From: Streptomyces griseus subsp. griseus
Lineage (GTDB): Bacteria > Actinomycetota > Actinomycetes > Streptomycetales > Streptomycetaceae
Reading direction: 5' to 3'
Length of the DNA: 64,000 bases
Assembly (NCBI RefSeq): GCF_003610995.1
Contig: NZ_CP032543.1
Span: forward strand, 1,364,001 to 1,428,000
The first letter of the stretch is position 1, and each line of letters begins with the position of its first letter. The notes under the pieces were generated by a model. That model had not been told where the DNA came from, searched no databases, and saw nothing but the letters and a program-made list of their open reading frames with translations. The position numbers were made by a program, and so were the translations under genes. Of this stretch, positions 17,690 to 50,305 are shown in pieces.

Positions 17690-17880
17690 TCGCAGCGTGG
17701 TGGACTGCCGGAGCCATTTACGGCGACAGAAGAGGAAGCCGGTGCGAATCCGGCGCGGTCCCGCCACTGTCACCGGGGAGCACTCCCCCACACCGGATGT
17801 CACGGCCCTCGCAACGCGGGCTGGAAGGCCGGGGGAACTGCGGATCCGGGAAGCCAGGAGACTCTTGTCGCCGGTCACGT
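17690..17880 (+). promoter_or_regulatory. Cobalamin (B12) riboswitch
   Basis: The conserved core is clear: GAGGAAGCCGGTGCGAATC at about 17733 followed by CGGCGCGGTCCCGCCACTGT to 17770, and the B12 box AAGCCAGGAGACTC at 17851-17864. It is on the plus strand directly upstream of the cobDQ-chelatase-cobOB genes. By family knowledge, adenosylcobalamin binding reduces expression of the genes downstream. The outer limits are approximate. Confidence 0.93.
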
Positions 17881-17917
17881 CGAACCAGGGCGCGGACCCT
17901 GAGTGAGGACATAAGCC

Positions 17918-47129: not shown

Positions 47130-48385
47130 TCACCAGGGCCAGTCAGCGCTTACCCCGGCCTCCAGCAGCGGAACCATGCGGAACGCGGCGTCGGAAAGCC
47201 CCCCGAACGTGTGGCGGTTTCCGTCGCCGGACGGGGCGTGGCCGAGGCGGTATCCGGCCAGGTTCCAGGTGTAGACGGGCACCGTGTCCGGAACGCTCCG
47301 GGTGGCGTCGCCGCGGAAGGTGGACGAGGCCTGCTCATCGGTGACGATCAGCACCCGGTCATGGCCACGGTAGTGGCGCTCCACCGCCCGTACGGTGTCG
47401 GTGCCGCCCAGGTTGCCGAAGCGCTCCAGGACCTTGAGCACCGATTCACCCGTGCGGTACGCCACCGGCGCGCTGGTCGTGCCGAACTCCACCAGGTCCG
47501 CGTCGGCGGCGCGCAGCGCGAGGGCGGCACCGAAGACGGCGGCGGCGTCGGCCCGGTTCAGCTGGGAGCGCCCGGAGAGCGGCGACCACATGGACCCGGA
47601 GCGGTCGACCAGGACCAGGGTGCGCCCCGGCAGCGCCGGTACCTGGTTCAGCGGGTGGCCGAGCGCCCGCTCCAGCGGGTACGCCCAGCGCAGCGAGGGC
47701 GCGTGCCGGTAGGCGGCGAGGGAGCGGAAGGGGAACTGCCGGGAGGCGGCGACGGCCTCCGGGTCGCAGATCCGCGCCGCCGCCCGGGCCGCGACCGCGT
47801 CACTCACCCCGGCCTCGTCGAAGTTCCGCAGGTTACGCACGAGCGCCATCGTCCCCATGGACGCAATCACCGCCTCCCACGCCTCCGCGTCCATCGGCCC
47901 CTGCAACCAGCCCGCCAGCGCCTCCCAGGTCATCCCGGCCCCGGCCAGCCGCTCGGCGCCGCCGGGCCCGGTGACGACCGCGCGACGCTCGGCGACCGGC
48001 AGCTCCATGAGGGCCCGGTGCGCGGTCAGGGTGCGGTCGCCGGCGGGCGGCACGGCGCTCTCCGGCCGGTGCCTGCGGTCCGGCGCGTACCGGAACAGCT
48101 GGCCCTGCCACGGCTTGGCCGGGTCCGGCGCGGCATGCACCAGGTTGAGGACGTCACCGAAGCGGAAGCCCTTGGACGCGGTGTCGTACTTCTCGCCACT
48201 CTCGTAGAAGGTCTCCTGCGCCACGAAGTCGGCGACGGCGAGCAGGAAGAGCTCGGACCGGCCATCCCGTACCCGCCCGGTGCCCCCTGGTGGTTGGCCG
48301 CGAGCCCACCGGTGGTGGTGACGGGCGAGGCGGGCCCCGGAAAGGCGGAACGGAGCTGGGTGACGCGCTGGTTGAACCGAGCCAT
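47130..48385 (-). pseudogene. rsr: Ro60-like TROVE/VWA protein gene, frameshifted and shortened
   Basis: The restored product would have about 418 residues. ATG 48385 opens MARFNQRVTQLRSAFPGPAS then TGGLAANHQGAPGG; reading then shifts frame near 48271-48279 (a CCCGCCC run) to RDGRSELFLLAVADFVAQET and continues to the stop. The TROVE part has TWEALAGWLQGPMDAEAWEA and ALVRNLRNFDEAGVSD; the VWA domain has the MIDAS motif LVLVDRSGSMWSPL. Actinobacterial Ro60 proteins are about 100 residues longer; here TFYESGE is joined directly to KYDTASKGFRFGDVLNL, suggesting an internal in-frame deletion. Ro60 binds Y RNAs, and one lies just upstream. Confidence 0.72.
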
Positions 48386-48456
48386 GAGAATCCCCGAATT
48401 CCTGGTTCCTGGTTCCCGGGGGAGGGCGCGGCGGCGGAACGGGGTGCCCGAGATCA

Positions 48457-48473
48457 GGGCCGTGTGACGGCCC
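48457..48473 (-). terminator. Hairpin following the Y RNA
   Basis: GGGCCGT and ACGGCCC form a 7-bp stem with a 3-base loop, 7 bases past the 3' strand of the Y RNA closing stem. It is a plausible 3' end signal between the RNA and the Ro60 gene. Confidence 0.55.
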
Positions 48474-48479
48474 GGGGTC

Positions 48480-48580
48480 GACGACGGAGAACATTCTGGT
48501 GCTCTGCCCATGTGAGCTACCGGCCGGAGCCGGACGGGACTCGAACCCGCAGCCGCCAGATCAAGGAAGTATCCGTCGTC
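48480..48580 (-). ncRNA. Y RNA (YrlA-like) with permuted tRNA-like module
   Basis: On the minus strand a 9-bp closing stem pairs GACGACGGA (48572-48580) with TCCGTCGTC (48480-48488). Inside it, past an asymmetric internal loop, TCTGG (48556-48560) pairs with CCAGA (48495-48499) as an anticodon-stem equivalent. Then come, in order, a T-arm GCGGGTTCGAGTCCCGT (48534-48550), an acceptor-like hairpin CCGGCTCCGGCCGG (48520-48533) and a D-arm GCTCACATGGGCAGAGC (48501-48517). T-arm before D-arm, with the acceptor closed by a loop, is a circularly permuted tRNA, as known for bacterial Y RNAs bound by Ro60. The Ro60 gene begins about 95 bases downstream. Confidence 0.82.
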
Positions 48581-48713
48581 TGCGCACCGGACACCCCGGC
48601 GCTCGCGCCTCCCGAGATCAACTGTGGCCGCGGCGTGGTTCGTTGCAGGAAGGAGCCGCGGCCTTCGCACCGGGAGGTGCATGTCCATGACCCTAGGGAC
48701 CGGTGTCCGCGCA
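48581..48713. other. Potentially structured segment upstream of the Y RNA
   Basis: TGCGCACCGGACACC (48581-48595) pairs with GGTGTCCGCGCA (48702-48713) with a 3-base bulge, and inside it GGCCGCGGC (48626-48634) pairs with GCCGCGGCC (48655-48663). The segment has no gene and contains the presumed promoter of the Y RNA. It could be a second structured RNA. Confidence 0.35.
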
Positions 48714-48749: not shown

Positions 48750-48784
48750 CGTGGGCATCTGCTCTGTCCGAGCAGATGCCCACG
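48750..48784 (-). terminator. Terminator of the 501-residue protein gene
   Basis: A 15-bp perfect stem (CGTGGGCATCTGCTC with GAGCAGATGCCCACG) and 5-base loop begins 15 bases past the stop of the minus-strand gene ending at 48800. Confidence 0.8.
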
Positions 48785-48799
48785 TCTGCGCTACGCTCC

Positions 48800-50305
48800 T
48801 CAGCTGCCGGCCCGCGACCGGGCCTTGAACGCGGCCTTTCGGGCGTCCTTCGCCGCCTTCTTGTCGCTGTGCAGGCGGCCCATGGCCTCCAGTACGTCGG
48901 CGGTGGCCGGGTGGTCGACGCGCCAGACCTCGTCGAAGAAGCCGCTGTGCTGGGCGGAGAGGCCCTCGACGAGGCCCTGGAGCTCGTCGAGTTCGCCGTC
49001 GGCGTCCAGTTGGGCGGCGATCGTGTCGATGGCCAGCCAGAAGATCATCGCCTCCGCCGGGGGCGGGACGTCGGACGCGCCGTGCTCCGCGAGCCAGACG
49101 CGGGCCAGGCCACCGAGTTCCCGGTCGCCGAGGACCGCGCGTACGGCGGGTTCGGCCGCCTCGCCGGCGAGGGCGAGCGCCTGCTGGCAGTGGAGGCGGC
49201 GCAGCGGGGCGCCCTCGTCCGTGCCGCGTGAGGCCGCGAGCAGCTCGGCGGCGGCCGGGACCGTGCCCTCGGTGCCGCGCCCGGCGAGCCAGAGCTGGAT
49301 CTCGGCCCGGGCGGCTGCCTCCGGGTAGTACGCGATGCCGTCGAGGAGGGTGTCGGCGCCCTTGTCGGCGAGGTCGCCGACGGCGGGGGCGTCGACCCCG
49401 GCCTCCAGCATCCGGGCCCGGACCCCGTACAGGCCGAGGGGGGTGAGCTTGACCATCCCGTACCGGGTGACGTCCTCCTCGTCGGCCCCGGCCGCCGGGT
49501 CCGCCGCGTCGCCCTCCTCGACCATCAACGCCTCGTCGACCGGCTGGTATTCGACGATCCCGATGGGTTCGAGGAGGCGGAACTGGTCGTCGAGGCGCAT
49601 CATCGCCTCCGACACCTGCTCCAGGATGTCGTCGGTGGGCTCGCCCATGTCGTCAGGGACGATAATCGACGCGGCGAGGGCGGGCAGCGGCACCGGGCCC
49701 TCGCCCGCGCCGTTCTCGGCGAGGGTGAGCAGGTAGAGGTTGCCGAGGACCCCGTCGAGGAACTCGGCCTCCGCCTCCGGGTCCCAGTCGAGGGCGTCGA
49801 AGTCGATGGAGCCGTCCTCACCGACGAGGTCCGCGACGTCGTCCAGGACGGGCGCGGTGGCGTCGGCGTGCACGGCGTCGAGGCCGTCGAGCCAGATGCC
49901 GAGGATGTCCTGCGGGGAGCCGGTGGTGAGCAGCGCCAGGTTCTCGCCCGCGGTGACGGTGCCTTCGGCTTCCGAGGCCTCCGAGGAGTCCGGGGCGCCC
50001 GAGCCGTCCGGGAGCTCCCCCTCCTCGGGGTCCGTGACGTCGAGGAGCCCGGTGTCCACGGCGAGCCGCCAGGCCTCGCTGGCGTACGCGGCACCGTCCT
50101 CGTCGGCGGTCAGGCCCAGGTGCTCGGCGGCCGCGGGCAGTTGCGCCTCCACCAGCTCACCGCCGGCGCCGACCCGTGCGTCGGGCCCCGCCCAGCGGGC
50201 GAGCCGGACGGCGCGGACGAAGAGCGGTGCGGCGAGCGCGTCCCGCGCCAGTTCGGCCTCGGAGTGCAGCCGGACCGGCGGCAGGATGGGGCGCTCTGCG
50301 GACAT
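48800..50305 (-). CDS. Conserved helical-repeat protein, paralogue of the 12.4-13.8 kb gene
   Basis: This is a 501-residue soluble protein of unknown function. The N-terminal half has LHSEAELARDALAAPLFVRAV and an acidic Ser/Glu insertion (SSEASEAEGTVTAGE); the C-terminal half is a run of helical HEAT-like units (WLAGRGTEGTVPAAAELLAA, AALRRLH-like helices, VEGLSAQHSGFFDEVWRVDH, then HPATADVLEAMGRLHSDKKA). It shares order and motifs with the frameshifted protein at 12412-13817. ATG 50305. It is unlike any enzyme I recognise; repeats of this kind often serve protein binding. Confidence 0.75.
   Translation of the reverse strand: MSAERPILPPVRLHSEAELARDALAAPLFVRAVRLARWAGPDARVGAGGELVEAQLPAAAEHLGLTADEDGAAYASEAWRLAVDTGLLDVTDPEEGELPDGSGAPDSSEASEAEGTVTAGENLALLTTGSPQDILGIWLDGLDAVHADATAPVLDDVADLVGEDGSIDFDALDWDPEAEAEFLDGVLGNLYLLTLAENGAGEGPVPLPALAASIIVPDDMGEPTDDILEQVSEAMMRLDDQFRLLEPIGIVEYQPVDEALMVEEGDAADPAAGADEEDVTRYGMVKLTPLGLYGVRARMLEAGVDAPAVGDLADKGADTLLDGIAYYPEAAARAEIQLWLAGRGTEGTVPAAAELLAASRGTDEGAPLRRLHCQQALALAGEAAEPAVRAVLGDRELGGLARVWLAEHGASDVPPPAEAMIFWLAIDTIAAQLDADGELDELQGLVEGLSAQHSGFFDEVWRVDHPATADVLEAMGRLHSDKKAAKDARKAAFKARSRAGS

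What the first reader, a model, noticed from the sequence alone, without database searches (positions are those of the whole stretch)
48457..48580. Tree-like Y RNA: a circularly permuted tRNA mimic next to a Ro60 gene
The minus strand has a 9-bp closing stem, an internal loop, a 5-bp anticodon-stem equivalent, then a T-arm with loop TTCGAGT, an acceptor-like stem closed on itself, and a D-arm with a GG-containing loop. T-arm before D-arm is the reverse of tRNA order. This is the architecture reported for bacterial Y RNAs that bind Ro60, and the Ro60 gene is immediately downstream on the same strand, with a small hairpin between. Such RNAs escape gene finders and tRNA scanners.
Basis: partly seen in the sequence, partly recalled or inferred. 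Interest (0 to 1): 0.93.

Follow-up and report, generated by a model that had tools for sequence, protein, structure and literature searches.

The report
Streptomyces Y RNA pair, broken Ro60
This stretch of a Streptomyces genome encodes a small RNA that copies part of a transfer RNA in rearranged order, plus a second, simpler sister RNA; relatives carry the same RNAs beside an intact Ro60 gene, but here the Ro60 partner gene is broken.

Summary
The minus strand folds into a YrlA-class bacterial Y RNA with a permuted tRNA-like module (T-arm, self-closed acceptor-like stem, D-arm). It matches Rfam RF02553 at 53.4 bits, E 2.5e-11, below the curated 69 bits, and covaries strongly over 33 Streptomyces sequences. 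Corrections: (1) the RNA is longer, about 48441-48598, and the 'small hairpin' is an insertion inside its basal stem; (2) a 76-nt sister RNA at 48605-48680 has the same basal-stem motif but no tRNA module; (3) the window's Ro60 is broken, with an early frameshift and a 333-bp deletion relative to the closest relative found. The sister RNA model matches 64 of 67 Streptomyces genomes with Ro60 and 1 of 54 without. Many loci add a third, distal RNA with an anticodon-arm-like hairpin (loop mostly CUNNUAA); some proximal RNAs have a tRNA-Leu-like module. The window RNA is a new member of a known kind; the set with differing tRNA modules looks like a new variant. Transcription, Ro60 binding and effector are inferred.

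The parts
48441..48598 (-). Proximal Y RNA (YrlA class, class I tRNA-like module), whole predicted unit
   Evidence: RF02553 48478-48579, 53.4 bits; model R2 48442-48598, 124.1 bits (the window is in R2's training set); covariation in 33 sequences, window included; fold z -3.18
48588..48597 (-). Outer basal (Ro60-side) stem, 5' strand
   Evidence: pairs with 48441-48450; 4 of 9 pairs of this helix show two-sided changes
48441..48450 (-). Outer basal stem, 3' strand
48581..48587 (-). Conserved 5' internal-loop motif (GTGCGCA), putative Ro60 contact
   Evidence: near-invariant in A1, A2 and A3; the contact itself is inferred
48451..48456 (-). Conserved 3' internal-loop motif (TGATCT), putative Ro60 contact
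   Evidence: largely conserved in A1, A2 and A3; contact inferred
48572..48580 (-). Inner 9-bp stem, 5' strand (pairs with 48480-48488)
   Evidence: fold; 8 pairs counted, 90.5% of cells paired; one of the 8 is unpaired in 22 of 33 sequences
48480..48488 (-). Inner 9-bp stem, 3' strand
48457..48473 (-).
   Evidence: absent from the other 31 rows of A3, present in L107 and readable in L216
48495..48560 (-). tRNA-like module closed by the 5-bp anticodon-stem equivalent 48556-48560 / 48495-48499
   Evidence: all 5 pairs of this helix show two-sided changes
48534..48550 (-). T-arm, loop TTCGAGT
48520..48533 (-). Acceptor-like stem closed on itself by a 4-nt loop
48501..48517 (-). D-arm (stem pairs invariant in A3, so covariation neither supports nor opposes it)
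48605..48680 (-). Second Y RNA: same basal-stem motif, no tRNA-like module
   Evidence: alignment A1 of 52 loci; two-sided changes; fold z -3.65, 0 of 200 shuffles; only R3 match in the own genome, 81.5 bits (the window is in R3's training set)
47130..48385 (-). Broken Ro60 (TROVE/vWA) gene: early frameshift and 333-bp deletion
   Evidence: TROVE 47.4 bits, frames, comparison with relatives; only TROVE match in the genome
48180..48192 (-). Junction of the 333-bp deletion in Ro60 relative to L107
   Evidence: blastn pieces overlap here
48690..48695 (-). Promoter -10-like hexamer TAGGGT upstream of the second Y RNA
   Evidence: read directly; inferred only, no promoter search was run
48751..48783 (-). 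Hairpin between the upstream 501-aa ORF and the Y RNAs, possibly a terminator
   Evidence: read directly; no terminator search was run

Best explanation
The element is a bacterial Y RNA of the YrlA class. Its 5' and 3' ends form a basal stem with a conserved internal loop (GGTGCG... / GATCTCGG) that in relatives would dock on the Ro60 ring. Its head is a permuted tRNA-like module that would be bound, and probably modified, by tRNA-recognising proteins, so the RNA tethers or gates Ro60 to an effector such as PNPase. It is encoded 6 nt from a second Y RNA that keeps only the Ro60-side stem, which may serve as a gate without an effector module. In this strain the Ro60 gene is broken, so the RNAs are most likely recently orphaned: structurally intact, with their partner lost. 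Shown: sequence, structure, covariation, linkage to Ro60 in the sampled genomes of the genus, and the broken gene. Inferred: transcription, Ro60 binding, effector binding, base modification, and loss of function in this strain.
For: RF02553 match, E 2.5e-11 and 8.4e-11 genome-wide. Covariation: YC, 33 sequences, 82 two-sided cells vs 18.4 shuffled, 0/500; YM, 52 sequences, 14 vs 2.1, 0/500. Sister RNA model R3 in 64 of 67 TROVE-positive and 1 of 54 TROVE-negative Streptomyces genomes (Fisher p 1.9e-29, inflated because R3 was built from 52 of the positive loci; the informative side is 1 of 54). The single exception, G065, keeps the last 70 residues of Ro60 beside its Y RNAs. In 80 named Streptomyces Ro60 loci, 77 carry at least one tRNA-like Y RNA by motif and 70 the sister RNA at 70 bits or more. 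Of 29 RF02553 loci fetched, 24 lie at Ro60 loci and 5 are tandem tRNA-Asn pairs. Window vs L107: 13 substitutions in 158 positions, 4 in paired columns, none breaking a window pair. Published YrlA: basal stem binds Rsr, tRNA-like domain is a substrate of DusA and TruB, complex with PNPase (PMC8394870, passages; PMC4726728, passages).
Against: No transcript evidence. The RF02553 score is below the curated 69 bits, as in all 121 genomes. The Ro60 gene of this strain is broken and no other TROVE match exists in the genome, so Ro60 tethering cannot be taken for granted here. The basal stem carries a 17-nt hairpin insertion absent from the other 31 of 33 aligned sequences apart from L107. One inner-stem pair is not kept in 22 of 33 sequences. 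For the sister RNA one of five measures (further pair types) is not above the shuffles (439 of 500 as high) and another is reached by 9 of 500. Ro60 deletion lowers Y RNA levels elsewhere (PMC4726728, passage), so the RNA may be unstable in this strain.
Confidence: 0.85

Rival explanations
1. The Y RNAs still act in this strain without Ro60: the tRNA-like head works alone as a decoy or regulator of tRNA-binding enzymes, or the truncated Ro60 remnant is still made and bound.
For: All 35 counted pairs are standard although Ro60 is broken. The Ro60 frame after the early frameshift, across the deletion, is open to its end. A competitive-inhibitor role of YrlA against an anticodon nuclease has been proposed (PMC7790460, passage).
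Against: The Ro60 lesions look recent (93.8-95% DNA identity of the remaining gene to relatives with an intact gene), so intact pairing needs no present function. The sister RNA model matches only 1 of 54 TROVE-negative genomes.
Confidence: 0.25
2. The structures are a cis-acting leader of the Ro60 mRNA (autoregulation by Ro60 binding) rather than separate small RNAs.
For: Upstream of Ro60 on the same strand in the loci where I found them. The sister and proximal RNA are only 4-9 nt apart in the 48 loci measured, 6 in the window, so these two very probably share a transcript.
Against: A Y-like RNA of the same stem motif lies between metK and priA, far from Ro60, in 8 genomes. The modules vary between loci while the stem stays. 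Known bacterial Y RNAs are separate small RNAs (PMC8394870, passage). A shared transcript could also be cut into separate RNAs.
Confidence: 0.15
3. A decayed tandem pair of tRNA genes. Tandem tRNAs naturally give the order T-arm, acceptor, acceptor, D-arm.
For: The Rfam YrlA model does hit tandem tRNA-Asn genes: in this genome (38.4 bits) and in 5 of 29 fetched loci. It fires in 7 of 14 control genomes.
Against: No tRNA is found in the window, and there is a conserved non-tRNA basal stem with covariation upstream of Ro60. As an ancient origin of the module it remains open.
Confidence: 0.02

Closest known systems
YrlA, Rfam RF02553 (Salmonella, Mycobacterium and others)
   Same: Order T-arm, self-closed acceptor-like stem, D-arm; a stem joining the 5' and 3' ends; neighbourhood of Ro60/Rsr.
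   Different: Below the Rfam curated score in 121 of 121 Streptomyces genomes. The window copy has a 17-nt hairpin in the stem. It is accompanied by a tRNA-free sister and, in many relatives, a third RNA with an anticodon-arm-like hairpin. I did not compare the outer stem with YrlA sequences other than through the Rfam model.
Salmonella YrlA/YrlB pair in the rsr-yrlBA-rtcBA operon
   Same: Two Y RNAs beside one Ro60 gene (PMC7790460, passage).
   Different: No rtcBA was looked for here. In Streptomyces the RNAs are upstream of Ro60, up to three per locus. I could not compare YrlB's structure.
Deinococcus radiodurans Y RNA (RYPER complex with Rsr and PNPase)
   Same: Modular: basal stem for Ro60, head for an effector (PMC4726728, passages).
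   Different: No sequence comparison was made here.
Permuted tRNA genes (algae, archaea)
   Same: tRNA parts in circularly permuted gene order (search listing only).
   Different: Those are processed to real tRNAs (recalled). Here the acceptor end is closed by a loop and the other end is a long stem.

Membership tests
YrlA (Rfam RF02553) | Curated gathering score, 69 bits | tested here: not met
   53.4 bits in the window; 0 of 121 Streptomyces genomes over the cut-off
YrlA (Rfam RF02553) | Significant match over the full model | tested here: met
   model positions 1-114 of 114, E 2.5e-11 in 501 nt
Bacterial Y RNA of YrlA class | tRNA-like domain with T, acceptor and D arms in permuted order | tested here: met
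Bacterial Y RNA of YrlA class | Basal stem formed by the two ends | tested here: met
   outer stem 99.2% of cells paired with 4 of 9 pairs changed on both sides
Bacterial Y RNA of YrlA class | Gene lies beside a Ro60 (rsr) gene | tested here: met
   sampled genus; in the window the Ro60 gene is broken
Bacterial Y RNA of YrlA class | Length 90-150 nt as reviewed (PMC8394870, passage) | tested here: inconclusive
   about 157 nt with the 17-nt insertion; the other proximal rows run 135-158 nt as cut by my pattern; ends are predicted, not mapped; the sister RNA is 76 nt
Bacterial Y RNA of YrlA class | Bound by Ro60/Rsr | not testable with these tools
   needs pull-down
Bacterial Y RNA of YrlA class | Modified by DusA and TruB | not testable with these tools
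   needs RNA; T-loop and D-arm are conserved
Bacterial Y RNA of YrlA class | Made as a discrete small RNA | not testable with these tools
   no expression data held
tRNA gene | Recognised as a cloverleaf by a tRNA finder | tested here: not met
   ARAGORN: 0 genes in the window
Functional Ro60 (TROVE) gene | Uninterrupted frame over the TROVE and vWA regions | tested here: not met
   frameshift in the first 40 codons and 333-bp deletion relative to L107

The most novel reading that the evidence does not exclude
Streptomyces Ro60 loci hold a set of Y RNAs whose heads are different captured tRNAs sharing one Ro60-side handle. One has no tRNA head. One has a head like tRNA-Arg (class I) or, in other species at the same place, like tRNA-Leu with a long variable arm (class II). 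One is a nearly complete permuted tRNA with its own anticodon arm, loop mostly C-U-N-N-U-A-A, the signature of tRNAs carrying t6A at position 37 (recalled). The heads would be swapped in evolution, the permuted order arising from tandem tRNA genes, and the distal RNA would act as an anticodon-loop decoy or as a substrate of tRNA-modifying enzymes. A further Y-like RNA with another head sits between metK and priA.
Probability: 0.35. Interest if true: 0.8.

Novelty: new variant of a known kind. Interest (0 to 1): 0.58.

Why it matters
How Y RNAs choose the effector that Ro60 serves is, to my knowledge, open. A genus with up to three Y RNAs per Ro60 gene, sharing the Ro60 handle but differing in the head, lets the question be tested by swapping or deleting heads in easily handled soil bacteria. 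The two standard routes tried here miss the window RNA: no tRNA call in the window, and none over the Rfam cut-off in 121 genomes. The window strain and G065 are natural Ro60 losses in which one can ask whether the RNAs keep a job.

Tried and rejected
Rejected: 'chance fold'; 'tRNA or tandem tRNA' as a present-day description; the second RF02553 hit of the genome (C1:2027563) as another Y RNA, because it is a tandem tRNA-Asn pair; a distal Y RNA elsewhere in this genome, because of the 8 matches of model R1 one is the window RNA itself, six overlap or resemble tRNA genes listed, and the last, L201 (32.9 bits), was read by eye only and not taken for a Y RNA. A Ro60 motif pattern of mine was no better than chance in the window (8 matches, 7.3 expected) and missed the two Y RNAs. 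The ABC-type annotation that I wrote in a note for the 501-aa upstream ORF is withdrawn: Pfam and NCBIfam find no family.

Against my wider reading: the tRNA kinship of the window's own head cannot be assigned (ties at 28; background mean 27.2). Only 3 of 76 distinct class I heads (L093 47; L105 and L238 45) exceed the best score seen between own-genome tRNAs of different amino acids (41). tRNA-Arg(acg) is best in 33 of 76, so 43 of 76 point elsewhere; class II heads score best against tRNA-Leu in at least 19 of 25. Position 37 of the distal loop is not A in 10 of 58 named and 5 of 42 A2 sequences, and 3 of 61 named distal RNAs have no such hairpin by my pattern. The phylum scan found the tRNA-free RNA in 8 of 396 genomes, all of this genus; a DNA search of 61 relatives shows pieces of it upstream of Ro60-like matches in another family of the order. 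The R3-Ro60 association is partly by construction, since R3 was built from 52 Ro60 loci. Models R1 and R2 were likewise built from loci that overlap the sets they were run on.

Rows dropped before counts: A2 left out L076 (hairpin deleted) and took in two proximal RNAs, L071 and L137. A3 used 33 of the 63 proximal rows, leaving out class II, aberrant rows and rows whose 3' end my pattern missed. A1 used the 52 rows found by motif in 74 loci. The motif script misassigned a few rows (L082, L094, L098, L104, L116, L134). Reference tRNAs were a fetched part of the genome's 66 places: 54 distinct sequences under 40 names used. Several named loci are the same genomes as G genomes (equal contig lengths), so the two sets are not independent; one search kept the best 80 of 536 confirmed stretches, so its loci are biased to close relatives.

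Print: among the titles listed (20 of 36 listed), 88 and 101 I saw no paper on Streptomyces Y RNAs. The library lacks most subscription papers; the key survey (Chen et al. 2014, RNA 20:1715) is not held and, from recollection of its abstract, reports likely Y RNAs near Ro60 in over 250 species, perhaps including Streptomyces. Passages only were read in PMC8394870, PMC7790460, PMC8628891, PMC9569102, PMC8190616 and PMC4726728.

Full report
What is there. On the minus strand, about 48441-48598, lies an RNA gene of about 157 nt. Its tRNA-like head and inner stem match the Rfam YrlA model over its full length (53.4 bits, E 2.5e-11; 8.4e-11 against the whole 7.24-Mb genome). The score is below Rfam's curated 69 bits, and the gathering-level scan of the window shows only a cobalamin riboswitch. 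ARAGORN finds no tRNA. A warning about the Rfam model: its other hit in this genome (38.4 bits) is a tandem pair of tRNA-Asn genes, and it fires in 7 of 14 control genomes. Of 29 loci fetched for it across the genus, 5 are tandem tRNA-Asn pairs, at 42-45 bits, and 24 lie at Ro60 loci. So the score alone would not prove a Y RNA; covariation and context do.

Comparison. 67 of 121 Streptomyces genomes, this one included, have a TROVE match. I fetched 73 neighbourhoods around the matches of the other 66. A motif scan found at least one Y-type RNA upstream of Ro60 in 65 of 74 loci, window included. Three positions recur: distal (about 540 nt before the conserved Ro60 block, 41 of 74 loci), middle (about 390, 52 of 74) and proximal (about 300; 61 of 74 loci have such a row, a few of them misassigned). 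The window has the middle and proximal ones. Middle and proximal RNA are 4-9 nt apart in the 48 loci measured. For the proximal RNA, 33 aligned sequences keep 96.4% of pair cells, with 14 pairs changed on both sides and 82 two-sided cells against 18.4 expected (0 of 500 shuffles), and sliding the partners destroys the signal. The anticodon-stem equivalent is the most telling: all five of its pairs show two-sided changes. The D-arm stem never varies and so says nothing, and one inner-stem pair fails in 22 of 33.

The middle RNA. At 48605-48680 the window has a 76-nt RNA with the same GGTGCG / GATCTCGG stem and no tRNA-like head (fold z -3.65). Over 52 loci its stem keeps 99.1% of pair cells, with 14 two-sided cells against 2.1 expected; one of the five measures, further pair types, was not above the shuffles. 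A model of it, R3, matches 65 of 121 genomes. 64 of these are among the 67 TROVE genomes; G043, G058 and G080 have TROVE without a match, and G065 has a match without TROVE. The Fisher p of 1.9e-29 overstates the case, since R3 was built from 52 of these loci, but its near absence from the 54 TROVE-negative genomes is a fair result. G065 keeps the last 70 residues of Ro60 beside its Y RNAs, so even the exception shows a former Ro60.

Named species. A scan of named genomes gave 80 Streptomyces Ro60 loci, kept as the best of 536, the nearest being Streptomyces sp. CB00316, S. anulatus and S. fimicarius. 77 of 80 have at least one tRNA-like Y RNA by motif; the other three have the middle RNA. 70 of 80 have a middle RNA at 70 bits or more and 7 more a shortened 34-39-nt form. 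61 of 80 have a distal RNA scoring at least 120 bits. Some of these genomes are also among the G genomes.

The distal RNA. It holds, before the T-arm, a hairpin of 5 bp with a 7-nt loop. The stem covaries: TTCCA/TGGGG 34, TTCGA/TCGGG 6, TTCCG/CGGGG 1, TTCCA/TGGAG 1 of 42. Over the whole structure 13 pairs have two-sided changes. In the named set 58 of 61 have the hairpin by a pattern that leaves the loop free: loop position 32 is C in 58, 33 is T in 58, 36 is T in 56, 37 is A in 48 and 38 is A in 58 of 58, while 34 and 35 vary. That is the pattern of anticodon loops of tRNAs reading ANN codons, which carry t6A37 (recalled). With T-arm, acceptor-like stem of 6 counted pairs and D-arm it makes a nearly whole tRNA opened between D-arm and anticodon arm. 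I found no such RNA in the window genome. One locus, L076, has lost the hairpin.

Kinds of proximal head. 25 of 101 distinct proximal heads have a D-arm of tRNA-Leu type (GGCGGAA). At least 19 of these 25 score best against tRNA-Leu of the own genome. Of 76 class I heads 33 score best against tRNA-Arg(acg). In L093 the two halves match tRNA-Arg(acg) nearly throughout, as if the tRNA had been opened in its anticodon loop and the basal stem inserted there. Most others, the window's included, are too diverged to assign.

The broken Ro60. The window's Ro60 is the genome's only TROVE match. Its first about 37 codons are in a different frame from the rest, owing to a one-base difference from the eight relatives compared. 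Relative to L107, 333 bp are missing (blastn offsets), so that about 111 codons between residues 63 and 175 of the 529-residue relative are gone; by analogy this is part of the RNA-binding ring (recalled). The remaining DNA is 95% identical to L107 over 1084 bp, so the damage looks recent, and intact copies exist in relatives. Against the same relative the proximal Y RNA differs at 13 of 158 positions; 4 lie in paired columns and none breaks a window pair. A sequencing fault could explain the one-base difference but hardly the deletion.

How it works, as inferred. The conserved basal stem is the Ro60 handle; [quoted passage not shown] passages). The tRNA-free RNA would occupy Ro60 without bringing an effector. 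In this strain the RNAs have probably lost Ro60. A possible role as a competitor for a tRNA-cutting nuclease has been raised for YrlA (PMC7790460, passage) and would suit the distal RNA best.

Elsewhere. Eight of the 121 genomes, all TROVE-positive (chance 0.007), have a Y-like RNA of about 100 nt in a shared neighbourhood with the same basal stem and another head. A coaBC-type and a PriA-type ORF flank it in all eight and a metK ORF was found in seven by sequence clustering, Pfam being run on three PriA, two metK and two coaBC ORFs. A pattern for its main form hits 6 of 121 genomes, all among those eight, and pairs with two-sided changes exist among the eight sequences.

Verdict. It needs three corrections: the RNA is longer, it is one of a pair, and its Ro60 gene is broken. 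The window RNA alone is a new member of a known kind; the wider set is what I rate as a new variant.

Noticed in passing
17700-17881 (+): Cobalamin riboswitch, 73.7 bits.
   Followed up: no
L189-L195 and L197 near 5000 (G genomes, coaBC-metK-priA neighbourhood): Y-like RNA of about 100 nt with the Ro60-side stem and a non-tRNA head, upstream of a PriA-type ORF in 8 Ro60-positive Streptomyces genomes, far from Ro60.
   Followed up: partly
L188:5017-5122 (+) (G064): A second Y RNA site away from the Ro60 locus. The head holds a hairpin reading like a T-arm on the opposite strand (GCGGGGATCGAACCCCGC), with what looks like another Y RNA starting right after it.
   Followed up: no
L198:4760-5090 (-) (G065): Y RNA pair beside a Ro60 reduced to its last 70 residues: a second case of Ro60 loss with the RNAs kept.
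   Followed up: partly
L065, L066, L067, L068, L070, L073, L075: Ro60 paralogues without the usual RNAs by motif whose loci hold weaker R3 matches (40-54 bits), perhaps their own tRNA-free Y RNA.
   Followed up: no
L248, L259, L275, L284, L289, L291, L292 near 2750: The middle RNA is shortened to 34-39 nt, little more than the Ro60-side stem.
   Followed up: no
L050:1311-1383 (+), L058:1398-1471 (+), L060:1718-1786 (+): ARAGORN calls tRNA-Met(cat), tRNA-Arg(ccg) and tRNA-Glu(ctc) inside or near the Y RNA arrays of these loci; the first lies where the distal Y RNA of the same genome was found (L103), so some Y RNAs may be annotated as tRNAs.
   Followed up: partly
48800-50305 (-): 501-aa ORF upstream of the Y RNAs without a Pfam or NCBIfam match; a similar 3' end is readable upstream of the RNAs in L101.
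   Followed up: no
G000:C1:2027563-2027675 and L054, L055, L057, L063, L064: The Rfam YrlA model fires on head-to-tail tRNA-Asn pairs, a trap for annotators and a hint to how the permuted order could arise.
   Followed up: partly
PDB 9l5y, 9kop: Two solved TROVE-domain proteins are the only sequence-level PDB relatives of the Streptomyces Ro60 at E up to 0.001.
   Followed up: no
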